Below, in pieces: positions 37,708 to 63,500 of a stretch of DNA of 64,000 bases (its first letter is position 1; the number at the start of each line of letters is the position of its first letter). Below the pieces are notes generated by a model, which was not told the DNA's origin, made no database searches, and was given only the letters and a program-made list of their open reading frames with translations. A program made the position numbers and the translations under genes. Source of the stretch: an uncultured Planctomyces sp. (lineage in GTDB: Bacteria > Planctomycetota > Planctomycetia > Planctomycetales > Planctomycetaceae); the NCBI GenBank assembly GCA_937899075.1, contig CALDJX010000608.1:1-64000 (forward strand). The letters run 5' to 3'.

Positions 37708-37770
37708 TTCTATGGTTCTCGTTGGAAAATCGTGATCGAGGCAGATAATCATCGAGACGTCACAGAAAGC

Positions 37771-38840: not shown

Positions 38841-38870
38841 CACAGCCAGAATGGCTGTGTCGCGAAGCGA
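38841..38870. repeat. small hairpins in the 5' leader of the CsgG-like operon
   Basis: cacagcc-agaat-ggctgtg followed by tcgc-gaa-gcga. Confidence 0.5.
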
Positions 38871-38975
38871 CAGGATGTTTCATCATGTGGGTGCAATTCA
38901 AAACGGCCGGCCTCAAATCCATCGACTGCTGACGAACCAGCCTGCCCTGGACTCCTGAATCAGGCTCGAAAAAAA

Positions 38976-39047
38976 AGCCACAGAGAACACAGAGGTCACT
39001 GAGTCAGTCACCAAGAATTATCTGAGGCCTCTGTGTTCTCTGTGGCT
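38976..39047. repeat. intergenic palindrome D (72 bp, 20-bp perfect arms)
   Basis: agccacagagaacacagagg (38976-38995) / cctctgtgttctctgtggct (39028-39047). Confidence 0.95.
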
Positions 39048-39084
39048 AAACATCTGATGAAGTTTTCTAAACGCTTTCCCTGAT

Positions 39085-40119
39085 TCATGACTCTGGTCGA
39101 GATGTGAGAATTCGATTCAGCAGGTATCTCGGTGCTGGTCCGCGGTTCCAGTTCTCGACGATGTTGAATCCGCAAAACACGAATCGTCCTTTGGTTTCGG
39201 GATAGTCGACAGTGACCCACGGCCAGTCGCCGTCTTCGGACACTTCCATTCCGATTCGATTCAGACGCGTTCGCAGCGTGACCTTTGAGCCAGCGAAGCC
39301 GCCGGGTCCTGGAAGAAATTCCGAATCCAGTCGTTTGTCAAATTCACGAATGACGTGATGCCGGCGAAATCGGAGTTCACCCGGCTGAGCATCCTTGATG
39401 TCGCCTTTCTTTGAGACTTCGCCGGGCATCGGGATGACGCCTTCGGACGGAGCCAGCATCAGAACGGTCCCTCCGGCGTCAGCGAAGCTGAGCAGTCGTT
39501 CCGCGAGTCCGCGATTTCGAATCAGCGACGTTCCCTCGCCGACGATCAGGTACGAGTGCTCATCGCCGTTCTCCAGCACCGCGATACTTCGAATTCTCCG
39601 ATGAGGGAGTTCGATCTTTTCAAACTGCGCGGCCGTTCTTCCGTCAGGATCAAAGAGCGTGAGTTGGCGATTTTCCAACGTTTCACGCTGATCGACAAAA
39701 GGATCTTCTGGAAACAGCCAGAGCGTTTTCGTCAGTGTTGCGGTTGCGGAATTCTTTCCACTCGGGACATAAGCCACGGTGAGTTCTGTTTGAAAGACGA
39801 CGCCGTCCCGCACTTCCGGAATTCGCAGAACGATCTCGGCCTGCGCCGCGTCGTCGCGACCAATCTCAGCTTCACCGCGAGCCAGCGTTCGTTGATTGGC
39901 CGAGTAGTGCCATTGAATGCGGCCGTCGACCGCTGGCTTTTCTTTCCGCTGCACGACTCGAAAGTGCAATGTCACTTCCTGATCGCCGAACACGTTCGAC
40001 CAGCGTTCAGCCGGCACGATCACAGCGGTGGCCTTGGGGTCTTCTGCGGCGAATACTTCCGATGCATAACACGGTAAAAACGTGAGCGTGATCAGGACCG
40101 AAGCAATCGTCGACTTCAT
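39085..40119 (-). CDS. exported hypothetical protein, third gene of sigma/anti-sigma operon (344 aa)
   Basis: Signal peptide MKSTIASVLITLTFLPCYASEVFA; 2-bp gap to 40122-40988. Confidence 0.75.
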   Translation of the reverse strand: MKSTIASVLITLTFLPCYASEVFAAEDPKATAVIVPAERWSNVFGDQEVTLHFRVVQRKEKPAVDGRIQWHYSANQRTLARGEAEIGRDDAAQAEIVLRIPEVRDGVVFQTELTVAYVPSGKNSATATLTKTLWLFPEDPFVDQRETLENRQLTLFDPDGRTAAQFEKIELPHRRIRSIAVLENGDEHSYLIVGEGTSLIRNRGLAERLLSFADAGGTVLMLAPSEGVIPMPGEVSKKGDIKDAQPGELRFRRHHVIREFDKRLDSEFLPGPGGFAGSKVTLRTRLNRIGMEVSEDGDWPWVTVDYPETKGRFVFCGFNIVENWNRGPAPRYLLNRILTSRPES

Positions 40120-40121
40120 GA

Positions 40122-40988
40122 TCAGCCTACCTTCTTATTGAGAACGGAGACTGTCCGGAGAATTCGATATTCAACACCGTCCGCGCCGGTCAGTAGTTCC
40201 TCGGAAGGTTGCCGATCTTTCTGCACGTTCGAAAACGCTGCGTGGAAAGGCATGTTCGTCGTGGGCGAAGCGGTCGTACTGCCTGGAGAAAACTCCAACT
40301 CGGAATCGATGGCGACCATCCCGTCTGGCAACACGTAAGCCCACAGGGTCATTGTTGTTCGGTCATCGTGCTTCGCGGCGAGCTTTACCACTTCTTCGTT
40401 CTGCGAAATAACGTCGGCCGACCACGCTCGCCGCCAGCCGCTTTCTGGAGACGTTCGGTCTTCAACCACCACTCGCACGGCAATTTCCACCACGTCGTTG
40501 TGAGCAAGCGACGTTTCAGTCGCTTGGGGATTACCGCTCAGCCCGAATTCGAATCGAGAGTCGGTTTCCGCGAGCCAGGTCAACTGATCGCCGAACACAT
40601 CCTTCATTCCTGAAAGAACGATCATCCGGTCGTCCAACTGGTCATCGTCCAGTTGTGCATAGTCGGGAAACTTCGGTTGCGTTGCTTCCGCGATCTGAAG
40701 TCTGCGGCCTCCAACGTCAATCGACTGTGCTGACCAGATAAACGCGACCAGTGCCAGGAGTGTTGCGCCAATCAAACGCCCCACCAGCGACACTCGACGA
40801 AGACTGATCGGTCGACACGGATACGCCGATGTCGCCGTGGGAAGCGACACGGTGGAAGTCGGCTCATCATGCATCGCTGATAGAATGCGGTCATGCAGTT
40901 TGTCGAGGTGCTCGGGACTGGCAGCCCGCTCGGCAGCCCACTGCTGCAGCATGTCGTCCAGTGGTTCGTGGGAGATTTTGTCGCTCAT
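40122..40988 (-). CDS. probable membrane anti-sigma factor
   Basis: One TM (VGRLIGATLLALVAFIWSA); overlaps the end of the sigma gene by 4 bp. Confidence 0.7.
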   Translation of the reverse strand: MSDKISHEPLDDMLQQWAAERAASPEHLDKLHDRILSAMHDEPTSTVSLPTATSAYPCRPISLRRVSLVGRLIGATLLALVAFIWSAQSIDVGGRRLQIAEATQPKFPDYAQLDDDQLDDRMIVLSGMKDVFGDQLTWLAETDSRFEFGLSGNPQATETSLAHNDVVEIAVRVVVEDRTSPESGWRRAWSADVISQNEEVVKLAAKHDDRTTMTLWAYVLPDGMVAIDSELEFSPGSTTASPTTNMPFHAAFSNVQKDRQPSEELLTGADGVEYRILRTVSVLNKKVG

Positions 40989-41572
40989 GACAGGTGCTCC
41001 TTCAGGAGACGTTTCAGCTTCCGGCGACCTTCGTGAATTCGCCAGTGGATAGTGTCGGGTGAACAGCCTTCGATTTCGGCAGCTTCGGCCGGACTGAATC
41101 CCTGCAGACAGACCAGCACCACGGCGCCACGAAGAGTCGGCGACAGGCTGGCAACCGCTGTTTCAACTTCGGTCGAAAGTTCCGCTTGCAGCACGGCTCG
41201 ATCGGGCGAAGCATCCGCCGACGTGACCGGGTCCTGTAGCTCCGACCGAAAGTCAACCGGCGATCGAGATCGACGCTTGAGGTATGAGTAAGTCGTGTTC
41301 ATCGTGACTCGGTAGAGCCATGTCGAAAACTCGGCTCGGCAGTCAAATGTTTCCACGCCGCGAATGGCTCGAAGAAAGACTTCCTGCGTGACGTCGTCGG
41401 CCTCGGAGTCGTTATGCACCATTTGGAAAACGGTGGCCCGAACCCGCTTGAGGTGCCGCCGCATCAGCTCGTCAATCGCCTCCTGCCGACCGTTGTCGCG
41501 GAAGAGTTCGATGAGTTGTTTGTCGGGCGTGTTGACCACTTCGGCGACAGTCTGTTCACGAGAGTCGAGCAT
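40985..41572 (-). CDS. ECF-type RNA polymerase sigma factor
   Basis: NDSEADDVTQEVFLRAIRGVETFDCRAEFSTWLYRVTMNTTYSYLKRR; SPTLRGAVVLVCLQGFSPAEAAEIEGCSPDTIHWRIHEGRRKLKRLL. Confidence 0.95.
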   Translation of the reverse strand: MLDSREQTVAEVVNTPDKQLIELFRDNGRQEAIDELMRRHLKRVRATVFQMVHNDSEADDVTQEVFLRAIRGVETFDCRAEFSTWLYRVTMNTTYSYLKRRSRSPVDFRSELQDPVTSADASPDRAVLQAELSTEVETAVASLSPTLRGAVVLVCLQGFSPAEAAEIEGCSPDTIHWRIHEGRRKLKRLLKEHLS

Positions 41573-47476: not shown

Positions 47477-50203
47477 TCATGCGTTTTGTGGAGCGATTTC
47501 TGGTCGGCGGTTGGGCCAGGCGAGGATCAGCATTTCGGTCAGCAGGAAGATCAGAACGGCGCCGACCAGCCACTTCCAGAGATCGCGGCCGCGGATGCGG
47601 GCTCCTTCGACGCTGATCGTTTCGTCGGCCTCCAGCCAGCGGTAACCGTCGACGCCGGCTCGTTCTTCGAAAGCCATCGCGTCGAGTGTTTCCAGCTGAG
47701 ATTCCTCGGGCGGGCAGTTGAATGCCAGTCTCGTCGAACGTGAACCTTCGGATGCCTGAGCGGCACCGTTCTCTGCGATGTCCGTTGAAGTTGACACGAC
47801 GTCGTAGTGTCCGTTGTTGACGGCTCGGTGAATCCGCAGGCCGTATCGTTCGGCACTCAGAGCTTCGACTGAAACTGCGTCACGGATTCCGTCCGGCATA
47901 ACGAGCTCCCAGCGAAGCTGATCAGAACGTCGAGCGGGCAACGTAACGACGTCTCCCGTTTCATAGTTGCGGCGCGGCAGCGTGTCTTCCAGAAGTTGCC
48001 GCAGCATTCGGTCGAACATCAGAATCGCGTTTGTTGAGGTCAACGTGTTCCAGCTCGAAAACAGCCCGGACGAAAGAAAGAAAGACCGACCGGCACCAAT
48101 GCGTCGCTCTGTCAGAAACGGGCGTTCTTCCAGCGTGTACCTTGCCAGGATTCGCGGCCGCGAACGTTCGGCGAGTTCGTCCGGTGATAGTTCTTCCAGA
48201 CGAGCCAGTTCGTCCGTGTCAGCCCAGCTCAGCCATCGCGGCTGGACTTCACGTCGGCGAGCTTCGTAGAATGCGCGTTCCGAAATCTGATCGTCGCTGA
48301 GGTTGCCTTGTCGATCGAGTTCGTCCCAGTCCGCACGGCTGGTGTCGGATGCTGAAAGCAGTTCGCGGCTCGTAGCAATACGTTTGGTTTCCGTTTTGAT
48401 AAGTGCGTCGATGAATGCCTGGTCGGTTTCGGCGGCGACCGCTTTGAAAAAGATGGGCGTGCGATAAAGATCGGTCAGAGAATCCTGAGACTCGCCTTCG
48501 ATCAGAAAGAAGTCGTGCTGCAGCGAGCGGAAGTCCAGATAGAACGGTTCGAGTTGCCCGACGGCGACTTCGGGAAGCTGACCAACCGGTTCGGTCGTTA
48601 ACTGAGTTGGAAGAATTCCCGCACCGTCGAGCCACGCCTTCGCCGCCCATTCGCTCGCGTCGAAATCAGCTCCGGCTGCGATGACCAGTGAACCGCCTTG
48701 CTCGACGTACTGCCGAAGCAGCGGCACGGACTCACCCGGCGATTCAACTCCGGCGATGACCACCAACCGGGCGTCGCTGAGCACTTCTTCTGTCAGGCGG
48801 TCGATCGTCAGATGGCGGATTCGCACAAGCTGCCGGTTGACTTCTTCATCCGTCGAAGTTTGTGGCGCGAGCAGGCGACGCAGTCGGTAAGTCTCGCCAA
48901 TTTCACCTCGGTCAGGATTTTCGGTGTCGCCGTACTGGTCGACAAAGACGACAGGCAGTCCGGCTACGACCGGCACGACAATGTGTCGCGAGTTGTCTCG
49001 CAACAGTCGGTCGCCGACTCCACCTTCCACACTTGCGGTCACCGTTGCTCGTACAAAAGTTGCCTCCGAGATCCCGGTACCCAGCGCGCCTGTGTCTGAA
49101 ATATTGTCGAGCCTTTGTCGAAACTCGACCTGCCTTGCCTGACCAGGTTCCAGATCGATGACCCGGCTGGCGATTTCGGCTCCGTCGATCGAAAGTTGAA
49201 TCTGCACGTTGGTTAGAGGGTGGCTGCCGGCGTGCTGGACTGTGGCGAGGAAGACAGCTGGCGTCTCCGTATCGGCAACGCCGTCCTGGAGTTCGAATTC
49301 GCTGACCCAGACGTTTTCAATTACTTCGGGCGCGATTCGCATGATTTGAAAGTCGGGCAAGGCCGCGAGCTGGCTGGCGTTCGTCCCGCCGGCCCAGAGG
49401 TTTGCCTGTTGATCGCTGATCAGCACGACTCGTTTAGATGGAAGTTCCGGAACCTGTCGACAGGCCGCGATCGCCTGGTCGATCGCAAAGTTGGCTCGAC
49501 CGATTCGATCGACAACCTTGATCCGATCGAGAGCCGCTCGCGCGTCCGACTTGTTTCGATAGGCACTCGTCGTGTCCGCTTCGTCTGAACCGCACAACGG
49601 CAGAATGTTGATGTGGCTGCCCGAAGGAAGAGCGTCGATAAACTCGGCAGCTTTCGTGCGAGCTCGATCAAGCAGCGTGCCTTCCAGAGATTCGTAGCCC
49701 ATGCTCATCGAATTATCGATCAGCAGCACGGCGTGAATCGGCTGCCGGCTGGTGAGCACTCCCAGCCCCTGGTCGTTCGCCCCTCGAAACATGCTGAAGA
49801 CCCCGAGCGCTCCCAGGCCGACACACAGAGCGCACGCACCGAACGCCAGGCCGCGAGTCTTACTGGTCGAAGTGAGAATCCCGCTGGCGGCTGTCGCGAC
49901 GGCTCCGACGATAGCCAGAGCCGTGCCGATTCCAACCAGCATCGTCCATGAAGAAACTCCTGACAGAAACGGACGCGCCAGAGCCGCTCCGAAAATCACG
50001 ACGGCCAGACAACGCAGAACCAGCACGAGCAGGTCGCGAAGCTGCACGGCTCGGCGGCTTCGCTGCATCGCCTGACGCAGAAAGTCCATCGCCGCCCACT
50101 CGACGACTCGAAAGCGGCGACGGTTCAGCAGGTGAATGATGATCGGACCGGCCGCGGCGATCAGACCTGCGATCGCAAACGTGCCGGCAAAGAACTTGAA
50201 CAT
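47477..50203 (-). CDS. BatA/vWA-type membrane protein (908 aa)
   Basis: FFAGTFAIAGLIAAAGPIIIHLLNRRRFRVVEWAAMDFLRQAMQRSRRAVQLRDLLVLVLRCLAVV; HAVLLIDNSMSMGYESLEGTLLDRARTKAAEFI. Confidence 0.9.
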   Translation of the reverse strand: MFKFFAGTFAIAGLIAAAGPIIIHLLNRRRFRVVEWAAMDFLRQAMQRSRRAVQLRDLLVLVLRCLAVVIFGAALARPFLSGVSSWTMLVGIGTALAIVGAVATAASGILTSTSKTRGLAFGACALCVGLGALGVFSMFRGANDQGLGVLTSRQPIHAVLLIDNSMSMGYESLEGTLLDRARTKAAEFIDALPSGSHINILPLCGSDEADTTSAYRNKSDARAALDRIKVVDRIGRANFAIDQAIAACRQVPELPSKRVVLISDQQANLWAGGTNASQLAALPDFQIMRIAPEVIENVWVSEFELQDGVADTETPAVFLATVQHAGSHPLTNVQIQLSIDGAEIASRVIDLEPGQARQVEFRQRLDNISDTGALGTGISEATFVRATVTASVEGGVGDRLLRDNSRHIVVPVVAGLPVVFVDQYGDTENPDRGEIGETYRLRRLLAPQTSTDEEVNRQLVRIRHLTIDRLTEEVLSDARLVVIAGVESPGESVPLLRQYVEQGGSLVIAAGADFDASEWAAKAWLDGAGILPTQLTTEPVGQLPEVAVGQLEPFYLDFRSLQHDFFLIEGESQDSLTDLYRTPIFFKAVAAETDQAFIDALIKTETKRIATSRELLSASDTSRADWDELDRQGNLSDDQISERAFYEARRREVQPRWLSWADTDELARLEELSPDELAERSRPRILARYTLEERPFLTERRIGAGRSFFLSSGLFSSWNTLTSTNAILMFDRMLRQLLEDTLPRRNYETGDVVTLPARRSDQLRWELVMPDGIRDAVSVEALSAERYGLRIHRAVNNGHYDVVSTSTDIAENGAAQASEGSRSTRLAFNCPPEESQLETLDAMAFEERAGVDGYRWLEADETISVEGARIRGRDLWKWLVGAVLIFLLTEMLILAWPNRRPEIAPQNA

Positions 50204-50652: not shown

Positions 50653-50860
50653 TACATTGCCGTGCAGGTCGAACTGCTGGCGACTGCGGCGAAGCTTGCC
50701 CGGCACGGCAGCGAGTTCTGGGTGGTCCGCCCGCGAGTCAGCCTGTCGAAAGTAACGGGACTCGATGCGGTCGTCGGAGCACGCTACCTCGGAGTTCAAC
50801 CGGGGTCGCCGGGCTCGGACGCACGATTTGAATTTGAGGTATCCGGACAGACTTCTGGGA

Positions 50861-51757
50861 TCAGTCAGCGAGAGCAGTCGCGACGCGAACAGAAACTTCG
50901 TCGTACAGATCGGCGGGAAGCACTCCGGACTTCGCAGAGGCAAGGTTCTCGGCGAGATGCTCCGCGTTGCATGTCCCCACAATCGTCGTATGACAATGAG
51001 GGTGCGACATCGTGTACCGCAGGATCAATTCGGCACGTGACATTTCAGCGGGCAGGACTTCGTCGAGCTTTGCGGTCGACCAGACCGCGTTCAAAGCTTC
51101 GCGTTGAATCTCCGCGTCCGGTCCACCTTGAGCGACGCCACCACGGATGATAATGCCGGCCCCAGTTTCTGCCGCTTTCGTAATCAGATCGTGATGCTTC
51201 GGTGCCAGGCACGAATAGGGGATCTGAAACGTGTCGAAGACGTGGAGCTCAATCATTCCCGGCAGATTGGGCAGCGAGCTCGACGATCCAATGAAGCGAA
51301 TCATTCCCTGATCCCGAAAGCTCATCAACGTTTCGATCAAACCGGCGCGCTGAAGAGATTCCGCATCGCCGCCGTGAAACTGCAGGATGTCGATGCAGTC
51401 GGTTTGGAGCCGTTTGAGACTCGTTTCCAGATTCTTTGCGACGACGTCGCGATCCCAGACATGGTCGATTTCAAGATGGTCGTCATGCTGGGTGTAAACA
51501 CAGCCACATTTGGTGGCGAGGTAGAACTCGCTTCTGCGGCCACTGATGTATCGGCCGATTCGTTCTTCGCTGACTCCGTAGTCCGGTGACGTATCAATGA
51601 AGTTAATCCCGGCGTCGAGCACGGAATTCAGAAACTCATCGGCAGCATCCTCGCTGACAACACGCACGCCCCAGGTCTTCGGGCCGCGCAAGCCCATACT
51701 TCCGTAGCCGAGTTGCGTTACTTCCAGACCTGTGCGGCCAAGAGTTTTCTTGAGCAT
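50861..51757 (-). CDS. aldo/keto reductase
   Basis: LGRTGLEVTQLGYGSMGLRG; GINFIDTSPDYGVSEERIGRYISGRR; LKRLQTDCIDILQFHG. Supplied ORF starts at 51874. Confidence 0.93.
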   Translation of the reverse strand: MLKKTLGRTGLEVTQLGYGSMGLRGPKTWGVRVVSEDAADEFLNSVLDAGINFIDTSPDYGVSEERIGRYISGRRSEFYLATKCGCVYTQHDDHLEIDHVWDRDVVAKNLETSLKRLQTDCIDILQFHGGDAESLQRAGLIETLMSFRDQGMIRFIGSSSSLPNLPGMIELHVFDTFQIPYSCLAPKHHDLITKAAETGAGIIIRGGVAQGGPDAEIQREALNAVWSTAKLDEVLPAEMSRAELILRYTMSHPHCHTTIVGTCNAEHLAENLASAKSGVLPADLYDEVSVRVATALAD

Positions 51758-51887
51758 GTCAGCAGATTCCCGATCAGCAGGTAAGCGGTGGCCGTCATCC
51801 ATCAATGTGACGGTGAGGCGTAACCTACTTTCTGCGGCGTGGGAATTCAGTCGTGCGAGCGATAGCCTGCTCATTCACGAGCGGAGT

Positions 51888-54800
51888 TCAGAGCTTCTTA
51901 CCGCGTCTCGGCTTGTCGTCTGACTGAGAGTCGATCCGCCCGATCAACCTTTCGTAGGCCTTCAGCGAATCTTCCAGACGTTTCTGCAGATTTCGAATGT
52001 CCGAACTCTGAGCACTGGTCGCACGATGAATCGGCTCCAGCCACGCTCGCATCAGTTCAAACTGCTCACGCAACACGCCGGTGAACGCCTTCGGCAGCCG
52101 ATTCACGACGGTAATTCGATTCTCAATCGGCTCCCCGGATTCCGGCGACGTAGATCCCGATGCAGCAGGAGTCGACACGGGAGCGACCGATGCGACCGCG
52201 GCGGGTGAAGCAGCGGCAGACATCAACAGCTGAGTCAGGTCGCCAAACTGACTGCCCATGTCCCCGAATTTCGAAAGCCCGGAATCCAGCGACTGGCTGA
52301 TCGACGCCAGCCCGGCCTGCATCCCGTCGAGTTGTCCGGTCAGAGCTTCCACCATTGCATCGACGTCAGAAGTGTCGGCCACTTCCTTAGCAACAGGTTC
52401 TGCGATGGCCTCGGCGGAACGCTGCTCTGCCAACTGAGCGACACCGGTGGCCATGGCCTTGCGAATTGAATCCAGGCCGTCTGACAGTGTTCCCAACTGA
52501 GCGATCACTTGTCCCGTCTTATCGTCCGACGAGATGCCGCGCATCTTCACGTTCTGTCGGAACGCCCGCTTAATGTCGTCCCAACGCTCTTTTTCTTCGT
52601 CCGTCATCAACTCGGTCAGTTCTCTGAACTTGAGCAGGTTGGCTTCGGTGCCGGACGTCAGTGTCTGAGCATCATTTTCGTAGTTCGATACAATCAACGC
52701 CGTGAGTTCGGCATCGTTCATCACCGAGACAACTTTCTCAGCGATGCGGTTCATGTTTCGGTAAGAGCCCTGCAACTTGAACGAAGGCTCTGTGCGGTAA
52801 TCATCCGACTGCGCCGCCGAGCGAATGTATTCCTTATTCACGGCAAGGATTACATCGCGAACCCTCATCAGCTTCTGCATCGTGCTGACAAGTTCGTTGA
52901 TTTCTTCCAGCGAATAATTGCCTTCGAGTTCGATGCCGTCGCGCGGCTCGTTGTTGGCCATGGCGATGATTGCGTAAACGTCTTTCTGGCTGCGGCTGGC
53001 CAGTTTGCTGAGCACTGGATTCGACGTCAGACAATTTTCGAGATAGCTCATCTCAAAGGCGTCGCTGGTTTCTCCGATGATCTCGCCAAGGTTGTAGATG
53101 TCGGCCCGGTTGGAAAGCATGTCCGGAATCTGAAACTTCTCGCCGCTTTCCGTGTACGGGTTCCCGGCCATGACGACGGCGACCTTGCGGCCTCGCAGAT
53201 CGTAGGTTCGCGAGCGGCCTTTGTAGACGCCTTCAATTTTCCGTTGAGCGTCGCACAACGAGATGAACTTCTGCAGGAATTCAGGATTCGTGTGCTGAAT
53301 GTCGTCGAGATAAATCATGACGTTATCGCCCATTTCGAGAGCGAGATTCAGCTTCTCAACTTCCTCACGAGCACCGGCGTTTGTAGTTTCGGTGGGATCA
53401 AGCGACGTCACGTTGTGCCCCAACGCCGGCCCGTTGATCTTCATGAAGATCAGTCCGAGGCGATTCGCGATGTACTCCATCAGCGTGGTCTTACCGTAAC
53501 CCGGCGGCGAGACCAGCAGCAGCAACCCCATCAGGTCCGTCCGCTTTCCTTCGCCGGCCGCGCCGATCTGCTTCGCCAGGTTGTCTCCGATCAGCGGCAG
53601 ATAGACCTCATTCAGCAGCCTGTTTCGAACGAACGACGTCAGCACGCGAGGGCGAAACTCGTCGAGTCTCATGTCTTCCCGATGTGACTCGACAATGTCT
53701 CGTTTCAGCTCAACGTACGCGTTGAAGCGAGGGACGATGACCCGGCTGAAATGGTCGAGTCGATGCGTGAACCGGTTGTAGTTTAAGTGGTAAGTCCCGC
53801 CGTCGATGACCGGATGGCTGCCGACAATGCCGGGCAGTTCGTCGTCAACCTGTCCGTCGATGAACTGTTTTCCGTCCGGCTTACCCGGCATCAGAATCAA
53901 GGCGATTTCGTCGACGTAATCGGTTAGTTTGGCATCGTCCTGAGTCGCCACGAAGGCCTGCACCCAGTTTCGCAACAGGCCAAAGCAACTGCCTGCGTCG
54001 CGATGCACCGCGTCGACGGACTTTTCGAAGGCGCTGTCGAAGTCGTTTCGCTTCAGATGAGTTCGAAACTCGTCGGCAAGACGATGGGCGACTGCACCGA
54101 CGGAAAATTGTCCGCCAGTCGTCAGTTCTGCAAACAGGTAATCGGCGGCTTCGCTGACATACTCTTCTTCAAATAACGAGGACTCGTCGACGAATTCTGT
54201 CAGCCAGGAGCTGATCTCGGAAATGTAGGCGGCCCGCCCTTCGACATCATTGAACACTTTGACGATGGCTCCGACTCCGGCGAGTCGAGCGTTCATCAAC
54301 GCCTTGGATTTCTTGTCGCCGAACGCGTGCCAGTAGAGGCTCGCCAGTGCTCGCGCTCGGGTGTGATACTTCAGCAACCCGATCTTCTGTTGCATCTTCG
54401 CCAGCGACGTCAGCATGTTTGCCGCGTCGGCGTCGTGCACGCCCTTGGTGTACGACTCGCTGTATCGCGGACCCATAAACTTCTGCACGAAAGCCAGTCG
54501 CTCCTCATCAGAAAACTTCAGCAGTTCTTCGGCCGTTGGCATTTCCTCAACGCCGAGCGAACGGAGCATCTGATACGCCAGATACTCTCCGCGATAGACA
54601 TCGCGGTTCTCCGAGGGCACCTCTTGCGTCGACACATCGTCCATCGACAGCAGTCGCTCATCAGCGATCGGTTCGAAAAAGTTTGTGCCAGTCAGGTGAA
54701 GACACATTTCGCCGTCACGCGTGACCGTCGTCAGATCGAGAGCCTGCACATTGACCGAGAACAAGTGCGTGCCGAGCCGAATTGTGTTTTCGCCTTCGAC

Positions 54801-57365
54801 AAACAGTTCGCTGCGGTCTTTCAGCTGCCGAACGGCGTCTTCGCGGATCGTCTTCAGGCGACTTTGGATGTCGTCGACTTTGACGCTGTCGTCGAGGTCG
54901 CGCAACTGCTCGATGATGTCGCGGACCTTTTCGATCATCAGGTCCGACGCGAAGTAGCCATTGATATCGTTGATCGTTTTAAAACTGGCAACGCGCGTCT
55001 GAATTCCCTTCAGAACGCGTTCGGCGGCACTCATTAGCGAGTTCGCACGCTTGTTTCGCGACTCGACCAGTGCCAGTTTTCGAGACTCAAACGCGTTGTA
55101 GACTTCTTCGCGTTTCTCAGTGAGCTGCAGGATAAATTCGTCGAACTCTGCGAATCGTCCTTCCAGTTCTTCGAGCTGGATCATGACCTTCGTCAGGAAC
55201 TCTTCGCACTTCTCTGGAGAGTCGCAGATGTCGAGGTAGTTGACGACGGCCTGATTCAACAGCTTCATCTGCGAATTGAATTCGGCGACGCCTTCGACTG
55301 ATGCCAGCTCCTTAATCTTCTTCTTCAGAACCGCTCGGGCCTGGTTTACCGTCGAGAAGATCGCTGAGATGTTGTCGATAATCGCTGTTCGATGAGTTGC
55401 GTCGTCGATCTTCAGATTGCTGACGATTTCGATCAGCATCTCCAGCTCGCTGGCACTTTTCGCAATGTCTTCTTCAAGCTGCTTCGCGTCGGTGACCTTG
55501 GTCAGGTCGTCGATTCGCGATTGCTCTTCCCGCACCTTGTCGTCGTAAGGCTGCAGCGATTCCGGCCGCAAGAGGAACTCAACACAGTGCCTGGATAGTC
55601 GATCGGTTTGCTTGGCGACGTCGGTCTCAAGGGCTTCTGCCAGGTCCAGATCGACGTAGCGGAGATCTCGCAGCGAGATAATGTCGCCACGAACGCCGCG
55701 CAGATCGCTCAGCGAAGCCACGAAGTCGTCGATGTGGTCAAAGCGGCGCTGTCTGATCTGAGTCAGGATCTCTTTGGTTCGAGTCTGAGTCTGTTTTGTC
55801 TGTTCGGTGGTGTTCTGCCGAACGCGGACAACCTTGTCGAATTCGTCGATCGCCGCCGTCGCAGCCGCTTTGACGTCGGAGAGTACTTCGGCAAGATTGA
55901 ATGTGTCTTCGCGGTTGATCCAGAAATAGGAGTCGATCGTGTCGCCAGACAGCTTGACCAGATCGAGGTAAAGGCCGGCGTACGAGTCGTCACGGTGGAT
56001 GAGATTCAGGACTTCGTGACACTCCGCCATGCCGCGAACGATGTCTTTATTTCCGATCTTCCCGAGGAACGAACCGTCCTGCGTGTGAGGGACGAAGTCC
56101 TCGCCGACGTAAGGCGTTTGCCAGATCTGGATCGCGTGGTGTTTCTGCGGATCGTCCTGAGACTTGAAGCAAAGCAGTTCGCCAGCTTCGAACAGCGCAA
56201 GGCCGCTGCAGATGATCGGCGTGTCAACCTGCTGGCTGATCAGGTTGTACGGAAGCAACGCGTACGTGCCGGACTCGCGGTTGTAAAAGACGTAAAGATA
56301 GTCTTCGCCGTTCGGTGCGGGGATCACCCGTTCGAACAACATGTCTGTCAGACCGTTGTCGAATGTCTTGTACTCGCCGGTCTGCAGGTAGTACCCGTTT
56401 GAAAAGATCAGACCGTGATCATCCGGCAGCAGCACACACGCATCTTTAACCGCGTCGAGCCTCAGAGCCTGCTGCAGCTTCTCGTTGAAGACGATGTGCC
56501 GAAAGTTTGTTTCCTGGTACGGACGAATCTTCAACAGGATGATATTGCCGACGATGGCGTAGTAGATTTCCGCATCGTCGAGCGTCTGATCTTTGTTGTC
56601 GACGTCTTCGGCATAGATGCCTTCGCCCGTGTTCGTGCTGTCTTCAACTTTGATCGTGAGATCGCCGCCGACCGTTTCGACGAAGACGCGATTCTCGATT
56701 GAGATGTGAGGATGTTCGCCCGACTGATGAAGTTCGCGGTGCGTGCGTTTCCACTCGAAGCCGTGCTGCGGGGGAAACTTGAATTCATGATCGCTGCGAT
56801 TATCGACATACCGCAGCGAGTCCTGACCTTCGATCACCCACTTGAATGTCTTGATCTCGCCGACACTCTTGCCAACGCGGAAGACCATGTAGAGGTGCGG
56901 GCCGCGGACGGCGAACTTGGCAAAAACCGCATTCTTGTAGTAGCGGAAGAGGTCTTTGAAGTCCTTCTCAAAGTCTTCGTTGCCGATCAGGTCGAGCGGT
57001 TCAGCATGAAACGTCTGCTCTTCGAAACGATAGACGGCGAAGACGTCCTGCAGATCGGTTTCCGTTTTGAGCCCGAAGTGGACGTTGTATCCGAGCAGGA
57101 TCCGATTACCGACGGCCAGCAGATCCCGCGCGACACAGTTGTGGTCGGTCGTGATCCTTTCGGTACTCAGCAGAACCGTATCAATCGAGCCGAAGACGTC
57201 TTTGCGAGCGTCGTTCAGCTGGTCGAGCCGCGAACGCAGCTCCTTCCCGCAGTTGACCAAACGATTACGAATGATCTCGTACGTGCTGCTTTCGAGGCCA
57301 ACCGACGTTTCAGTGCTCTCGGCCGAGCTGTCAGGTTGTTCTTCAGACATCGTCGAAGTATCCAA
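51888..57365 (-). CDS. giant AAA ATPase (1825 aa), resembles DUF3686-type 'DNA repair ATPase' proteins
   Basis: Walker A LLVSPPGYGKTTLMEYIANRLG, Walker B NVMIYLDDIQH, VVMAGNPYTESGEKFQIPDMLSNRADIYNLG; long coiled-coil middle. Confidence 0.85.
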   Translation of the reverse strand: MDTSTMSEEQPDSSAESTETSVGLESSTYEIIRNRLVNCGKELRSRLDQLNDARKDVFGSIDTVLLSTERITTDHNCVARDLLAVGNRILLGYNVHFGLKTETDLQDVFAVYRFEEQTFHAEPLDLIGNEDFEKDFKDLFRYYKNAVFAKFAVRGPHLYMVFRVGKSVGEIKTFKWVIEGQDSLRYVDNRSDHEFKFPPQHGFEWKRTHRELHQSGEHPHISIENRVFVETVGGDLTIKVEDSTNTGEGIYAEDVDNKDQTLDDAEIYYAIVGNIILLKIRPYQETNFRHIVFNEKLQQALRLDAVKDACVLLPDDHGLIFSNGYYLQTGEYKTFDNGLTDMLFERVIPAPNGEDYLYVFYNRESGTYALLPYNLISQQVDTPIICSGLALFEAGELLCFKSQDDPQKHHAIQIWQTPYVGEDFVPHTQDGSFLGKIGNKDIVRGMAECHEVLNLIHRDDSYAGLYLDLVKLSGDTIDSYFWINREDTFNLAEVLSDVKAAATAAIDEFDKVVRVRQNTTEQTKQTQTRTKEILTQIRQRRFDHIDDFVASLSDLRGVRGDIISLRDLRYVDLDLAEALETDVAKQTDRLSRHCVEFLLRPESLQPYDDKVREEQSRIDDLTKVTDAKQLEEDIAKSASELEMLIEIVSNLKIDDATHRTAIIDNISAIFSTVNQARAVLKKKIKELASVEGVAEFNSQMKLLNQAVVNYLDICDSPEKCEEFLTKVMIQLEELEGRFAEFDEFILQLTEKREEVYNAFESRKLALVESRNKRANSLMSAAERVLKGIQTRVASFKTINDINGYFASDLMIEKVRDIIEQLRDLDDSVKVDDIQSRLKTIREDAVRQLKDRSELFVEGENTIRLGTHLFSVNVQALDLTTVTRDGEMCLHLTGTNFFEPIADERLLSMDDVSTQEVPSENRDVYRGEYLAYQMLRSLGVEEMPTAEELLKFSDEERLAFVQKFMGPRYSESYTKGVHDADAANMLTSLAKMQQKIGLLKYHTRARALASLYWHAFGDKKSKALMNARLAGVGAIVKVFNDVEGRAAYISEISSWLTEFVDESSLFEEEYVSEAADYLFAELTTGGQFSVGAVAHRLADEFRTHLKRNDFDSAFEKSVDAVHRDAGSCFGLLRNWVQAFVATQDDAKLTDYVDEIALILMPGKPDGKQFIDGQVDDELPGIVGSHPVIDGGTYHLNYNRFTHRLDHFSRVIVPRFNAYVELKRDIVESHREDMRLDEFRPRVLTSFVRNRLLNEVYLPLIGDNLAKQIGAAGEGKRTDLMGLLLLVSPPGYGKTTLMEYIANRLGLIFMKINGPALGHNVTSLDPTETTNAGAREEVEKLNLALEMGDNVMIYLDDIQHTNPEFLQKFISLCDAQRKIEGVYKGRSRTYDLRGRKVAVVMAGNPYTESGEKFQIPDMLSNRADIYNLGEIIGETSDAFEMSYLENCLTSNPVLSKLASRSQKDVYAIIAMANNEPRDGIELEGNYSLEEINELVSTMQKLMRVRDVILAVNKEYIRSAAQSDDYRTEPSFKLQGSYRNMNRIAEKVVSVMNDAELTALIVSNYENDAQTLTSGTEANLLKFRELTELMTDEEKERWDDIKRAFRQNVKMRGISSDDKTGQVIAQLGTLSDGLDSIRKAMATGVAQLAEQRSAEAIAEPVAKEVADTSDVDAMVEALTGQLDGMQAGLASISQSLDSGLSKFGDMGSQFGDLTQLLMSAAASPAAVASVAPVSTPAASGSTSPESGEPIENRITVVNRLPKAFTGVLREQFELMRAWLEPIHRATSAQSSDIRNLQKRLEDSLKAYERLIGRIDSQSDDKPRRGKKL

Positions 57366-57407
57366 TCTTTACGTGCGTTTGGTGGCGACTCCCCTTTGGA
57401 ATGGCAG

Positions 57408-57436
57408 AAGCGGCGCAACCCATCGCTGCGCCGCTT
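57408..57436. promoter_or_regulatory. 10-bp perfect hairpin between the flotillin and AAA genes
   Basis: aagcggcgca-acccatcgc-tgcgccgctt; not followed by a clear T run on the minus strand. Confidence 0.6.
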
Positions 57437-57452
57437 GCGTGCCCGTTGTCAC

Positions 57453-59576
57453 TTACGCGTTGGGTACGTCCGATGATCCGCCAGCCAGTGATGCGATCTT
57501 GCGATTCGCGATCGACGTTCCGGCGACCGTGTCGAGCATTCGTGTCAGCTCAGAACGAGACTCGTCAGTGTCGGCCAGCGTCAACAGTTTCCCGATCAGA
57601 GCTGTCACCGACAGGTCTTTCACATCTTCAAAACTGACGTTGAACTGGCTGGCAAACGAGGTCAGCTTCGTCCGGAAGTATTCGGGATCGCCGTTGAAGA
57701 ACGTCTGCTTAATGTCGGTCACCGTTTCGCTGTTATGAACGAACCTGTCGACTGACTTGCCGGCTTTGATGGAACCAACGATCTGATCGAAGAACGTCGA
57801 CTCTCCACCGACGATGTCGATGCGGGCCGTTTTCAGAGCTTCGCCGACGATGTTCGACTGAGCTTCCGCGATGTCCTTCTGAGTATGAATCGCGGCGATT
57901 TCGATTTCCTTGTCCTTGTTCAGCCGCAGCTTGAATTCTTCGTGCTCTCTGCCGACGCCGTCGAACAGCTTCATAGCTTCGGCCTTCTCCTGAATGCCGT
58001 TCGCTTCTGAAGTGAACTTGAGCTGCATGACCGTCGCTTCGGCAGCGCCTTCTTTCTCGATGCCAACCGCTCGCGCTTCCTGCCCTTTCGCTTCGGCAAC
58101 GGCTTTCTTCTGGAGAACGTTTGCTTCCGCCGTGCCGGTTCGCTCAATCGCTTCGGCTTTGGCGACCATGACTTCGGCATCGGCAAGCCCGATCGCGGCG
58201 TGATCAGCAGCTTTGGCTTCGGCCAGCATTTTTGTGGCCGAGGTGTCTTTCTCAGCGGACGCTCGGCGAGCTTCTGCTTCGACAACAACCTGCTCGGCCG
58301 TCAGGTCAGCAGCTGTCTTGGACGCTTCGGCGGCTTTAACCTGCTTGACGAGTTGTTCCTGAGCGTCCATCTCGGCCAGTGTAATGGCGACTGTCTTTTG
58401 CCGATCTGCGCCCATGAACGCTTCGGTATTTTTGATGCGTTCCTGTTCTTCCACGACGGCTCGTTCGACGGCGACGCGTTCGCGGATCACTTCCTGGATA
58501 TTCTTCTTTTCGATTTCGATCGCTTTTTCTTTTTCGATCGAAGCCAGACCGACGACTCGCTCGCGTTCGGTCATCTCGAGTTCACGATCGCGGATAACTC
58601 GTTCCTGCTCGACTCCGTCGGTTCGTTCTTTGCTTCGTTGCGCGACGAGCACCTGACGTTGCTTGTTTTCTTCCTGGACGGCAATTTCTTCCGCAGCGCG
58701 AATTCGAGCAGTTTCGGCCTTCAAGTGTTCTTCTTCCTGGACCTTGGCAGCTTCGGCCTGCTCACGGGATGTGATGGTTGCAATTTCTCGTTTCTGTTTT
58801 TCGACGGCTTCGACTCGCTGTTTTTCCAGTTCCAGGATTGCTTCCTGAGCTTCCACATCCTGCTTCTTCAGCGTCTTTTCTTTTTCACGTGTGAACTGGT
58901 TTTCCTGGACTTTTTCGAGTGCCGTCAACTGCGTGATTTTCTTGATGCCTTCTGCGTCAAGAATGTTGTTCGGGTTGAGCCGTTCCAGCGGAGTCTGTTC
59001 CAGATAGTCGATCGCGCAGTCATCGAGCACATAACCGTTGAGGTCCGTACCGATGACTCTCAGAATCTGCTCTTTGAACTGATCCCGTTCGGTGTAGAGC
59101 TTCACGAATTCAAAGTTCTTACCGACCGTCTTCAACGCTTCAGAGAACTTCGCCTCGAAGAGTTCTTCGAGTTTGTCCTGCTCGGATGCGCGACGAGGTC
59201 CGATGGTTTCTGCAACCGTCTTGATGTCTTCAGGCTGATTGTTCACTCGGATAAAGAACGTAACTTTGATGTCGGCCCGCATGTTGTCCTGACAGATCAG
59301 GCCGTCCTCGCCGTCTCGAGCGATCAGTACGCGTTTGACGGACAGGTCCATCAGGTGCGCTTCCTGAATCAACGGTACGACAATCATGCCTCGGCCAGTG
59401 ATCGTCGCCAGCCCGCCGACACCCGTTCGGACGATGGCTTCTTCCGGTCCAGGCTTTCGGTAGAACTTCGAGAACGCCGTGATAAAACCGACAAACAACA
59501 CCAGCAGCGCCAGGCCTCCGAAGAAGAAGACCATCAGTTGCTCTGTGTCCATTCCGAAAACGTTGCCTAGCAGCAT
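57453..59576 (-). CDS. SPFH/band-7 flotillin-like protein (YqiK-like, 707 aa)
   Basis: N-terminal TM; YRKPGPEEAIVRTGVGGLATITGRGMIVVPLIQEAHLMDLSVKRV; AKVQEEEHLKAETARIRAAEEIAVQEENK coiled coil; AEAKGQEARAVGIEKEGAAEATVMQLK. Confidence 0.93.
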   Translation of the reverse strand: MLLGNVFGMDTEQLMVFFFGGLALLVLFVGFITAFSKFYRKPGPEEAIVRTGVGGLATITGRGMIVVPLIQEAHLMDLSVKRVLIARDGEDGLICQDNMRADIKVTFFIRVNNQPEDIKTVAETIGPRRASEQDKLEELFEAKFSEALKTVGKNFEFVKLYTERDQFKEQILRVIGTDLNGYVLDDCAIDYLEQTPLERLNPNNILDAEGIKKITQLTALEKVQENQFTREKEKTLKKQDVEAQEAILELEKQRVEAVEKQKREIATITSREQAEAAKVQEEEHLKAETARIRAAEEIAVQEENKQRQVLVAQRSKERTDGVEQERVIRDRELEMTERERVVGLASIEKEKAIEIEKKNIQEVIRERVAVERAVVEEQERIKNTEAFMGADRQKTVAITLAEMDAQEQLVKQVKAAEASKTAADLTAEQVVVEAEARRASAEKDTSATKMLAEAKAADHAAIGLADAEVMVAKAEAIERTGTAEANVLQKKAVAEAKGQEARAVGIEKEGAAEATVMQLKFTSEANGIQEKAEAMKLFDGVGREHEEFKLRLNKDKEIEIAAIHTQKDIAEAQSNIVGEALKTARIDIVGGESTFFDQIVGSIKAGKSVDRFVHNSETVTDIKQTFFNGDPEYFRTKLTSFASQFNVSFEDVKDLSVTALIGKLLTLADTDESRSELTRMLDTVAGTSIANRKIASLAGGSSDVPNA

Positions 59577-59578
59577 AG

Positions 59579-60208
59579 TTACGTTCCTTTTTCAGCCCGC
59601 TTGATCAGATAAACATTCTGTTCCCGTTGGAAACCGACGATCACCGCTTCGTCGCCTCGAGTCAGGCCAAATTCTTCGGCTCGAACTCGCAGCTTGAGAG
59701 GGGCTCCGTCGGTCGAGTACTCCGCCTCGCCGAATGATTCAGTTACTTCGCTGGTGGTTACCTTGCAGTTTCCACCGATCAGGTCTTTTGCCAGGTTCAC
59801 TTCTTTAGGATCGAAGCGGCCTCGCAAAGGTTGTGTCAAACATTTGGTAATGAAGACCGCGATTCCCGTGTCTCGCAGAATCGCCAGCCCGTCGCTCGCC
59901 AGTTCAAGATTTGGATGCGCCACCGGGCTGTTGATCAGCCGCGAAGCCATCCATCCGGTTAACGCAAAAACGCTCAGCCACAGCATCGTCGGCACGCTGC
60001 CGATGTTCAGCCACTTCAGCGGAATGAATCCAACCTGAAGAATTGACGCGTCCACGTCGGCATCGAGATCGAAGTCCAGGTCAAAGTCGAGTATGTCCAT
60101 GTCGAGAGCGCCCAGCATGACCAGGCACCAGTACCCGCAAACCAGAATCAGCAGGATCGTCGCGGGGTAAGACGGCCAGGAAAAACAGCCTTCGATAAAC
60201 TGATCCAC
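59579..60208 (-). CDS. OB-fold membrane protein (YqiJ/NfeD-like), GTG start
   Basis: TM, MLGALDMDILDFDLDFDLDADVD, TM, C-terminal LIGGNCKVTTSEVTESFGEAEYSTDGAPLKLRVRAEEFGLTRGDEAVIVGFQREQNVYLIKR. AGGAG before the GTG; supplied ORF extends to 60238. Confidence 0.85.
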   Translation of the reverse strand: MDQFIEGCFSWPSYPATILLILVCGYWCLVMLGALDMDILDFDLDFDLDADVDASILQVGFIPLKWLNIGSVPTMLWLSVFALTGWMASRLINSPVAHPNLELASDGLAILRDTGIAVFITKCLTQPLRGRFDPKEVNLAKDLIGGNCKVTTSEVTESFGEAEYSTDGAPLKLRVRAEEFGLTRGDEAVIVGFQREQNVYLIKRAEKGT

Positions 60209-60311
60209 TGACAATTCTCCTGCCCGGTTCCAACCCAAAGGTCACGACATCGAAAACACGAATAACTGCATGTCACAAGTTTTTCGTGACAAGTAGCTTG
60301 CCGTCCGGGAC

Positions 60312-60430
60312 CTGAATATTTCACGTCGGTCGTGAATTCAGGCAGTCTGCGATGCGGGGTGACACTCTGTCGGTTTTGAGAGACGATGCAAATATGCAGC
60401 ACGTTCCGGGCAGCGAAGCCGGGGAACGTG
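60312..60430. promoter_or_regulatory. two inverted repeats upstream of the YqiJ-like/flotillin operon
   Basis: ctgaatatttcacg-tcggt-cgtgaattcag (60312-60341) and cacgttcc-N15-ggaacgtg (60400-60430). Confidence 0.4.
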
Positions 60431-60591
60431 GAAACGCACGATTGGGATCACAAGTAATCTGCCACTCGCCAGGATAAACCGTCTGGCGCGATTACAACGG
60501 CAGCAAGAAGGGCTCACGCAGTTTTCGAAGACAACGTCAGGCGAAGCCATTCGGCGCGACCCGCCAGCTCACCCAGCGCCAAACTCGCAAT

Positions 60592-63500
60592 TTACGGCTG
60601 CTGCGGCGATGACGGGTCAGCCTTGTGATTTGAATTCGGATTGTCGTCACTCGCAGAATTGTCAATCCTGGTTGCATCGGCTGGGTCAGCCAGTTGCGGA
60701 CGAGTGACCAGATCGGAGTCGTCGTTAAACAGAATTCCCGGTTCCAGGTCTGGTGGAGAATCGGTGAGCACTTCGCCTGTCATGGCCAACAGCCAGGCCT
60801 TAACCATTGGTCGAAAGCGGCTTTCGGGGAAGTCGTCGACCAGTGCTTTCAAAGTGGAAGTCGCTTTGTTGCAGTCACCGGCTTCGAGATTGGCCATAGC
60901 GCTGGTCCATTGCAGGATCGCGATCTCGTTGGCAGTTTCCATCATCGTTTGAGATGAGATCAGCGTTTGACTTGCCGGCCAGATATTGCTTTCTCCCAGA
61001 AACTGCGGCGACGGCATTGCAAACGGAACGGTGGCCATCATTGCTTGAGTGCTGGCGGACTTGAGTTGTTGAATGCGTTCGGTGCAGCGTCTGGCGGCGC
61101 TTTGATAGTCGCCCAGAGCCATGTCGAGCCAGCAGGTCTGAAGCACGACGGTTAATGGAATGCCAGCCGCATTTCCCATTTGTTCGAAGGTTGCGAACAT
61201 CGCGCTGGCTTCATCAAGACGTCCAGTCTCGGCGAGCAGAAACGCGAGCTGAAGTTCCGCCATTTGATTTCCGGCGACGGCGAGCCGATCGTCTTCCAGA
61301 ATCTGCAGTGCGCGACCTGCAAAGCCAGCTTGATTCAACGCGGCTGCAAGCTGGGCGCGATCGACGTTTTCCTGCTGCATCGCCTCTTCAATGCGCTTGT
61401 CGGTTGCTTCAACCTGCGGAGCGATCTGTTGTTTCATCTGGTTGAGCTGTCGCGCGAACTTAAGAATCTGATCACTCAGTTCAGAGTCGGCGAGTTTTCG
61501 GATTACGGCCAGAGCACGTTCACACATTTCAAGCGTCAGGTCGGTTCGACCAACCGAGTGGTAGAGCTGGGCCGCGCCAAACAGCAGTTGCAGATTTTCT
61601 GGGTCGATGACCAGAGCCTGCCGCATTGCGTAAAGCCGCTGGTAATACCTCTGTTGAGTAGGAACTGGAAGCTGAAACTCGGCCATCAGATTTGCTTCAA
61701 CACTTTGCAGAATGCTGTGAACGTCTGCCTGAATGCTGAATATTTGAGCGTTGTCTGTTTCATCGCTGATGCCGGCCGCCGCGTCGCGAAGTGCGAGAAT
61801 GGCAAGACCCAGTGCGTCGCCGCGTTCCATCGGCAATCCGCCGCTGGCAACTGCGGAAAGGTGGGCCAGCTCATGCCTCGCCCTTTGTGCGAAGTTGGAA
61901 ACTGGCGGAGTCGGTAAAGACAGAAACTGCTGATAGCTCGAAGCGGGCCGCGGCCATTCAACCCGAGTTTGGATGTCTGACTTCACTCGGCATTCTTCAA
62001 ACGCGATCTTCTTAAAGAACCCGAGATTCAGGTTCGATAGCTGTGCACCAGGGAGCTGTTTCGATTGAGAAAAGAATGCTGTCGAAGCGCCCAGCGCGAC
62101 CAGATCCCAGTGTGGTGACGCGACGAGATCGAAGTACGAGTTGTAGTCCGGATTCACCCCCCACATCCGCGGCGTCACCAGTTTGACCTGGTACTCGTCG
62201 AACGGCGCTTGCCAGAATTCTTGTTTTCCGAGCCAGGCGTCCGATTCGTTGACAGACCTCCCTGAAGCAGGATCTGCAGACGCAGGCTTCGCCGCGCCTC
62301 GTCTCAATGCATAACGTGCTTTGTTATGAGTCTTGAGGATGTCGTTGTCGCCGCCCGCGAAGACTCCGACGCGACTGTCAACGAACGATGGAACGCCGTG
62401 CCAGAGCAACACGTCGGCCTGATCGAGTCGGAAGGTGAAGATGCGTCCTTCAGGCAACTGCTCGACTTCGTCTCGGGCAGCTTCGATCGTTGCAGCCAGA
62501 AGTGGAGAGAAGCCGAGTCCGACGCGCCGACCTTCCGGCCCCATCAGTCGACCACTGATCGCCAGAAACGCGATCGCCGCAAAGCCGAGCACCGTGACTG
62601 CTCGCCCGGCTCGTGACCACAAAACTTCAGCCGTTTCGATCGTGTATTCCTGTCGGCAGCTGGCCCGGTACCAGTCCTGGCCGTTCAGCGAAGCGAGTAC
62701 ACACGAAACAAGAGCCAGTGTTCCGAGTTCATGTGAGCACGCGATCGAAAGTCCAAGCACGGCAACGTAGGTTGCCAACAGGCCAACGTTCAGTCGTGAA
62801 AAATTCATGACACTTGTCACGGCAGCGACGACGGCGATCGTCAGCGCAGCAATCGTGTGCAGGTTGAGATTTTCCCAAAACACAGAATCAAACAGAGGAA
62901 CAAGCTGCAGCTCGTGTGGAAGTCGGATTCGCCCGGCGTACTCGGCCAGAGCCGGCATCTCGACTCCGTACAGCTGAATCGGAGAAAGAATTGCGTGCCA
63001 GCCGAAAGGGTTAATCATCAGCGCGACGAAGCCGACTCCTGTCGCCATCGCCAGACCTTTCAGCGATGCACTTTCGTGGAGTGATCCTCGACCGAATTTC
63101 TGACCGATCGCGGTTCCTGCCAGATAGGCCAGCAGAATGAACCAGCCGATGAATGCTCGCGGATCGAGGTTGCTCCAAACCGCCAGAGAACCAGCCAGGC
63201 ACCATAGCGTCGACTGCTTCCCGGTTTGCGACCACAGGTGCAGCCCTCGCAGCATCCACGCCACTCCGAGCAAAGTGACGACCTGCGGCAGCACGGTGAA
63301 CTGCAGATTCACCATCAGCAGCGCAATCCCAACGCAGACTGAAGTCCACCAGGTGGGGAGTTCGTCGCGAGTGATTCCGTGCAGAAAGTAAAACGTTGCG
63401 CCCGCAGCCAGGGCTGTCATTAACGTCAGCCCGGTGGCACCACCGACTCCGTGCACACCGGCAATCATCAAGTCGAACAGCCAGGCCAGATTAACCCAGG

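What the first reader, a model, noticed from the sequence alone, without database searches (positions are those of the whole stretch)
51888..60208. Membrane OB-fold protein + flotillin + 1825-aa AAA ATPase operon
Seen: three collinear minus genes, 2 bp between the first two and 87 bp before the third: a two-TM OB-fold protein with an Asp-rich segment, a YqiK-like SPFH protein with a very long coiled coil, and a giant protein with Walker A (PPGYGKTT), Walker B (MIYLDDIQ) and long coiled coil. Knowledge: YqiJ/NfeD-type proteins pair with SPFH proteins in membrane-microdomain assemblies. Large ATPases of this kind are often labelled DNA repair ATPase, but I see no DNA-repair signature. Inference: a membrane scaffold coupled to a remodelling or surveillance ATPase, possibly stress- or defence-linked.
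Basis: partly seen in the sequence, partly recalled or inferred. Interest (0 to 1): 0.75.

Follow-up and report, generated by a model that had tools for sequence, protein, structure and literature searches.

The report
Flotillin–YqiJ–DUF3686 AAA ATPase membrane operon
These three genes are the planctomycete version of an operon found across many bacterial phyla, in which a giant ATPase (usually mislabelled "DNA repair ATPase") is almost always encoded right behind a flotillin scaffold protein and its small membrane partner; it is probably a membrane-stress machine of a type already described in 2024, whose function is still unproven.

Summary
The genes encode a YqiJ/NfeD2-like membrane protein, a YqiK-like SPFH protein (32% identical to E. 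coli YqiK, E=5e-50) and a DUF3686–DUF7902–AAA+ ATPase. The linkage is very strong. In the planctomycete phylum sample, 34/34 ATPase-bearing genomes have OB–SPFH directly upstream in the same order. Of 67 named loci from many phyla with enough upstream sequence, 64 have the SPFH gene upstream, 59 have both genes, and one has them divergent and adjacent. All 8 plasmid-collection loci inspected have the trio. The system is not new: Ravi et al. 2024 (PMC11237479) describe this operon, with and without CesT/Tir and PspA. The Bacteroidota loci found here are exactly the PspA-containing form. This planctomycete has the short form, with two unlinked PspA genes elsewhere. The AAA+ domain is closest by fold to MoxR-type remodelling ATPases (NorQ/CbbQ), with RuvB and MCM also related. 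Neighbouring genes give no support for defence. Most likely it is a membrane-scaffold-coupled protein or membrane remodeller for envelope stress. The substrate is unknown.

The parts
59579..60208 (-). YqiJ/NfeD2-like membrane protein (209 aa, GTG start; mechanical ORF from TTG 60238): hydrophobic segments at about 12-38 and 67-87 with an Asp-rich stretch between, then a predicted OB/NfeD-type C-terminal domain
   Evidence: PF21001 YqiJ_N E=8.5e-6; hhalign of its family profile to E. coli YqiJ prob 96.2%, E=2e-9; hydropathy; RBS and start from sequence and alignment A3
57453..59576 (-). YqiK-like SPFH/flotillin protein (707 aa): N-terminal TM, SPFH domain, very long E/K/A-rich helix
   Evidence: BLASTP to E. 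coli YqiK 32% id, E=5e-50; hhalign prob 99.9, E=1e-36; Band_7 in 6/18 orthologues, none in this member itself
51888..57350 (-). DUF3686 giant AAA+ ATPase (1820 aa from ATG 57350; 1825 aa if TTG 57365 is used)
   Evidence: PF12458 E=9e-190, PF25472 E=8e-28, PF00004 E=5e-9; only copy in the genome
55923..57242 (-). DUF3686 domain: repeated beta-sheet module, propeller-like, behind an N-terminal helix
   Evidence: AlphaFold model pLDDT 89, pTM 0.87; Foldseek hits dominated by beta-propellers, E about 1e-6, but TM-scores only 0.1-0.3
55308..55559 (-). DUF7902 within the helical linker
   Evidence: PF25472 residues 598-681 of the 1820-aa protein
52401..53813 (-). AAA+ module (residues 1180-1650): Walker A PPGYGKTT, Walker B YLDDIQ, predicted presensor-1 hairpin, sensor 1 AGNPYTES, Arg finger NRAD, sensor 2 GSYRNM
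   Evidence: A1/A4 invariant columns; motif counts; model pLDDT 81; Foldseek: best target-normalised TM among listed hits NorQ 0.60, cso-CbbQ 0.57, then RuvB, MCM

Best explanation
A three-gene membrane-remodelling module. SHOWN here: conserved gene order, orthology to YqiJ and YqiK, ATPase domain make-up, intact AAA+ motifs, PspA/CesT linkage in Bacteroidota. INFERRED: the YqiK-like SPFH protein oligomerises on the cytosolic face of the inner membrane into a ring or cage. The YqiJ/NfeD-like protein anchors and sizes it through its TM helices and OB domain. The DUF3686 ATPase forms a ring via its MoxR-like AAA+ core and docks through its propeller-like N-domain and helical linker on the SPFH assembly. 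It uses ATP to remodel a client, either a membrane protein, the scaffold itself, or PspA polymers, when the envelope is stressed. In this planctomycete the PspA partners, if used, are encoded elsewhere in the genome.
For: Linkage in same order and strand: 34/34; 64/67 with SPFH upstream and 59/67 with both, plus one divergent; 8/8 plasmid-collection loci from Pseudomonadota, Actinomycetota, Deinococcota and Bacteroidota. Distance matrices of the three proteins correlate (ATPase-SPFH r=0.86, permutation maximum 0.12; 86 loci), which shows co-inheritance although shared ancestry contributes. Bacteroidota operons read HTH(<) CesT_Tir - PspA - YqiJ - SPFH - ATPase. AAA+ fold closest to NorQ/CbbQ; the literature describes MoxR-class ATPases as chaperone-like remodellers (PMC3893208, PMC9976466). 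SPFH cages working with AAA+ machines have precedent in HflKC-FtsH, and an SPFH-NfeD structure (QmcA-YbbJ) is cited in PMC12624060. FloA-NfeD holds unfolded proteins (PMC11222466). Ravi et al. 2024 reach a similar submembrane-assembly reading.
Against: No direct biochemical or genetic data on any DUF3686 protein were found: no paper in the library holds the term DUF3686. E. coli yqiJK has no ATPase neighbour, so the scaffold can exist without it. Walker B is D-D rather than D-E in 85/86 relatives, so hydrolysis is assumed. No VWA gene, the usual MoxR partner, belongs to the conserved module. P. aeruginosa lacking the SPFH member of the related operon (PaFlo3) shows only about 20% less biofilm (PMC13086221).
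Confidence: 0.6

Rival explanations
1. It is a DNA-repair ATPase, as Pfam and database annotation say; the flotillin pair is incidental or tethers repair to the membrane.
For: The PF12458 title is 'ATPase involved in DNA repair'; RuvB and MCM are among fold and weak sequence relatives. A Shewanella YqiK homologue mutant (SO1377) has more spontaneous resistant colonies and H2O2 sensitivity (PMC1468410).
Against: No DNA-binding or nuclease domain was found in the protein. No repair gene recurs among its neighbours. MoxR-type folds fit better by TM-score than RuvB or MCM. Linkage to membrane proteins is near-universal. The SO1377 authors read their phenotypes as iron and oxidative effects.
Confidence: 0.07
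2. It is an anti-phage or other defence system.
For: Large ATPase plus membrane protein is a common defence layout; patchy distribution (34 of 248 genomes in the phylum); some copies on plasmids.
Against: No PADLOC family fits the proteins beyond a weak mad8 P-loop match, E=9e-4; neighbours show no recurring defence family versus the control genes; no phage copies; no effector domain recognised; single chromosomal copy in the window's genome.
Confidence: 0.08
3. It is a stress-response or metabolite module tied to polyamines and ion homeostasis, the ATPase being a chaperone for a transporter rather than a membrane remodeller.
For: On plasmid pQBR103 the trio directly follows DUF2491-DUF350-DUF1190-glutathionylspermidine synthase genes; Ravi et al. 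link PspA-CesT/Tir operons with polyamine genes; one Streptomyces copy lies about 4 kb from a TerD gene.
Against: These genes were not seen around the window, and in the phylum only the trio is constant.
Confidence: 0.15

Closest known systems
CesT/Tir-PspA + band-7/flotillin + beta-propeller AAA+ ATPase + YqiJ/YuaF operon, and its abbreviated forms (Ravi et al. 2024, PMC11237479)
   Same: Same three proteins, same domain order described (TM+band-7+coil+flotillin; AAA+ with N-terminal propeller and coil; YqiJ-like TM protein); the authors state that short forms without PspA are widely distributed
   Different: This copy lacks CesT/Tir and PspA in the operon (two PspA genes lie on other contigs); the SPFH protein has no Pfam flotillin-domain hit
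P. aeruginosa bacABCDEF operon (PA14_16140-16200; PMC10948618)
   Same: DUF2170(CesT/Tir)-PspA-NfeD-SPFH then two downstream genes, shown by RT-PCR to be one operon
   Different: I could not fetch bacE/bacF to confirm that one is DUF3686; reported sigma54 control, whereas no sigma54-like site was found upstream of the window operon
E. coli yqiJ-yqiK and SPFH2-NfeD2 pairs (PMC2636767)
   Same: Homologous scaffold pair in the same order
   Different: No ATPase gene next to it
MoxR-class AAA+ ATPases (NorQ, CbbQ, RavA)
   Same: Closest solved folds by target-normalised TM-score (NorQ, CbbQ); GNP...E.G...P.ML.NR pattern
   Different: 1820-aa fusion with propeller-like and helical parts, Walker B D-D, SPFH partner instead of VWA partner
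HflKC-FtsH and QmcA-YbbJ (SPFH cage assemblies)
   Same: SPFH scaffold working with an AAA+ machine / an NfeD partner
   Different: ATPase not FtsH-like and not fused to a protease; no structure of this complex

Membership tests
Ravi 2024 YqiJ / band-7-flotillin / AAA+ operon (abbreviated form) | YqiJ/YuaF-like TM protein gene in the operon | tested here: met
   PF21001 E=8.5e-6, hhalign to YqiJ 96%
Ravi 2024 YqiJ / band-7-flotillin / AAA+ operon (abbreviated form) | band-7/SPFH + coiled coil + flotillin protein | tested here: met
   YqiK homology E=5e-50; the C-terminal flotillin domain was not detected by Pfam, so met for SPFH and long helix only
Ravi 2024 YqiJ / band-7-flotillin / AAA+ operon (abbreviated form) | AAA+ ATPase with N-terminal beta-propeller and coiled coil | tested here: met
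   DUF3686 + DUF7902 + AAA; N-domain model is all-beta with propeller top hits, low TM
Ravi 2024 full operon | CesT/Tir and PspA genes in the same operon | tested here: not met
   None next to the window operon; PspA at G000:C494 and C378, unlinked
SPFH2 / YqiK-like flotillin | Sequence homology to YqiK over SPFH domain and helix, paired with an NfeD2/YqiJ gene | tested here: met
SPFH2 / YqiK-like flotillin | Oligomeric membrane-microdomain scaffold | not testable with these tools
   needs fractionation and EM
MoxR-class AAA+ | AAA+ core with presensor-1 hairpin, closest to MoxR folds | tested here: inconclusive
   Strands 192-205 and NorQ/CbbQ best TM-target 0.53-0.60, but Foldseek E-values for RuvB/MCM are similar and no clade phylogeny was made
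MoxR-class AAA+ | VWA-domain partner | tested here: not met
   No VWA gene in the conserved module; a BatA/VWA protein at 47477-50203 of the window is not conserved with it
DNA repair ATPase | DNA-binding/repair domains or repair-gene context | tested here: not met
Known anti-phage defence systems | Match to a defence protein family or defence-gene context | tested here: not met

The most novel reading that the evidence does not exclude
The DUF3686 ATPase docks on the YqiK cage as a propeller-decorated AAA+ ring and acts as a membrane-bound, protease-free unfoldase that disassembles PspA (ESCRT-III-like) polymers or extracts misfolded membrane proteins: a bacterial functional counterpart of Vps4 or of HflKC-FtsH without proteolysis, found in many phyla and mislabelled as DNA repair.
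Probability: 0.2. Interest if true: 0.75.

Novelty: new member of a known kind. Interest (0 to 1): 0.38.

Why it matters
The functions of YqiK-like flotillins and of "DNA repair ATPase" DUF3686 proteins are both open. Near-absolute linkage across at least eight phyla says they are one machine, that the DNA-repair label is probably misleading, and that the two questions can be answered together with simple deletions and pull-downs. The operon type itself is already in the literature, so this locus adds statistics, a planctomycete short form and a fold assignment, not a discovery of the system.

Tried and rejected
Pfam, NCBIfam and PADLOC on the three proteins: no extra domains, no defence family. 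Own SPFH protein against Pfam: no hit; resolved through YqiK and orthologues. Solved-structure sequence search: only weak P-loop matches for the ATPase, one weak coil match for SPFH, none for OB. Promoters: no sigma70-like site in 50800-60800, no sigma54 site above chance and none upstream of the operon. Defence-island idea tested with immediate versus distant neighbours and rejected. PspA co-occurrence (27/34 module-bearing versus 45/214 other genomes, Fisher p=6e-11) looks like support, but the window's own family carries PspA with or without the module, and the families labelled f21 and f49 likewise include module-negative PspA-positive genomes, so I treat it as shared ancestry. Genes inserted between SPFH and ATPase in some relatives look mobile or unrelated (IS200-like transposase, GxxExxY, nucleotidyltransferase-like; read from sequence), not system parts. 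A Pseudomonadota-wide survey could not be centred on the E. coli locus, so plasmid records were used instead. Literature search for DUF3686: none; 'DNA repair ATPase' with flotillin: none.

Full report
OBSERVATION. The window carries three collinear minus-strand genes at 51888-60208 as described. Starts need slight correction: GTG 60208 for the OB protein (209 aa), with a Shine-Dalgarno-like AGGAG upstream, and most likely ATG 57350 for the ATPase (1820 aa, 102 bp gap), judged from homologue N-termini. No terminator-like site lies on this strand between the genes.

IDENTITY OF THE PARTS. The small protein is a YqiJ relative (PF21001 E=8.5e-6; profile match to E. coli YqiJ 96%). The large protein is a textbook DUF3686 protein: DUF3686, DUF7902 and a C-terminal AAA+ core, present in all 19 orthologues tested. 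It is the only DUF3686 gene in the 8.0 Mb assembly.

NEIGHBOURHOOD TEST. In a 248-genome sample of the phylum, 34 genomes have DUF3686. I fetched the loci of the other 33, and all 33, plus the window, have OB and SPFH genes directly upstream in the same order and strand, with median gaps of 27 and 141 bp. Outside a genus the flanking genes are not conserved. A scan of public genomes gave 80 named loci from Planctomycetota, Verrucomicrobiota, Bacteroidota, Desulfobacterota, Clostridia, Kiritimatiellota and others. Of 67 with at least 2.5 kb upstream, 59 have OB+SPFH and 5 more have SPFH upstream; one has both divergent and adjacent; only L075 and L093 have neither. Twelve records in the plasmid collection carry the ATPase. 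Eight were inspected (Pseudomonadota, Actinomycetota, Deinococcota, Bacteroidota) and all eight carry the trio. Some of these records are very large and may be mislabelled chromosomes. Distance matrices of the three proteins correlate strongly (r 0.72-0.86, permutation maximum about 0.12, 86 loci), as expected if they are inherited together. The linkage is therefore about as strong as gene context can be.

LINK TO PspA. In 18 Bacteroidota-type loci and one Hymenobacter plasmid the operon begins with a CesT_Tir_1 gene and a PspA/IM30 gene, with a divergent HTH regulator. In one genome of the window's own phylum (G143, locus L047) two PspA-like genes sit immediately upstream of the trio. The window's genome has two PspA genes on other contigs. 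PspA co-occurs with the module across the phylum (27/34 versus 45/214), but members of the same family have PspA regardless, so this is not independent evidence.

THE ATPASE. Walker A is invariant (86/86). Walker B is D-D in 85/86 and D-E in none. Sensor 1 AGNPYTE, the Arg finger and sensor 2 are conserved in 82-85 of 86. The AAA+ model (pLDDT 81) has a hairpin before sensor 1. Among the listed Foldseek hits, the best target-normalised TM-scores are NorQ (0.60) and CbbQ (0.53-0.57), with MCM and RuvB also present at similar E-values. This places it in the MoxR/RuvB/MCM neighbourhood, nearest to protein-remodelling MoxR ATPases; no clade phylogeny was made. The N-terminal DUF3686 domain models with high confidence (pLDDT 89) as repeated beta sheets after one long helix. 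Its top structural hits are mostly propellers, but global superposition is poor (TM 0.1-0.3), so "propeller-like" is as far as I go; Ravi et al. call it beta-propeller repeats.

PRIOR ART. Ravi et al. [quoted passage not shown] The P. aeruginosa bac operon (PMC10948618) is probably a full form; its SPFH member (PaFlo3) deletion has only mild effects (PMC13086221). No paper in the library holds the term DUF3686.

MECHANISM. Shown: gene linkage, homologies, intact motifs. Inferred from known families: SPFH proteins form membrane-attached cages (PMC12624060; PMC11260169); NfeD-type partners bind them (PMC11222466; QmcA-YbbJ cited in PMC12624060); MoxR ATPases remodel client complexes (PMC3893208). 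My reading is that the trio is a membrane scaffold with its own ATP-driven remodeller, used in envelope stress, sometimes with PspA. Client, direction and trigger are unknown. The DNA-repair label has no support in domains or neighbours, and a defence role gained no support from PADLOC or neighbours.

VERDICT. It is a new member of a described but experimentally uncharacterised operon type.

Noticed in passing
window 53295-53312 (ATPase Walker B, residues 1347-1352): Walker B reads YLDDIQ; the second acidic residue is Asp in 85 of 86 relatives and Glu in none, so the family may have an altered catalytic base.
   Followed up: partly
L150 (plasmid pQBR103, Pseudomonas fluorescens SBW25) 1-10656: The OB-SPFH-ATPase trio directly follows DUF2491-DUF350-DUF1190-glutathionylspermidine synthase, joining two operon groups that Ravi et al. 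list separately; a phospholipase D family gene lies about 9 kb downstream.
   Followed up: partly
L073:6996-7547, L126:8242-8793, L132:6817-7350: Some relatives carry an extra short SPFH-only protein (about 180 aa, no long helix) between OB and the main SPFH gene; possibly a second cage subunit.
   Followed up: partly
L047 (G143:C89) 4601-6076: Two adjacent PspA-like genes sit immediately upstream of the trio in a genome of the window's own phylum, with a third PspA match about 1 kb or more beyond the ATPase end (G143:C89:19135-19791).
   Followed up: partly
window 47477-50203 (-): 908-aa BatA N-terminus + VWA protein, the partner type of MoxR ATPases, about 1.7 kb downstream of the operon; not conserved with the operon.
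   Followed up: partly
window 31671-41572 (-): An ECF sigma factor gene followed on the same strand by two genes without Pfam hits and three large proteins with CsgG-like stretches.
   Followed up: no
L075 and L093: The only two DUF3686 loci with full upstream sequence and no SPFH/OB gene within 10 kb; whether the partners are elsewhere in those genomes was not checked.
   Followed up: no
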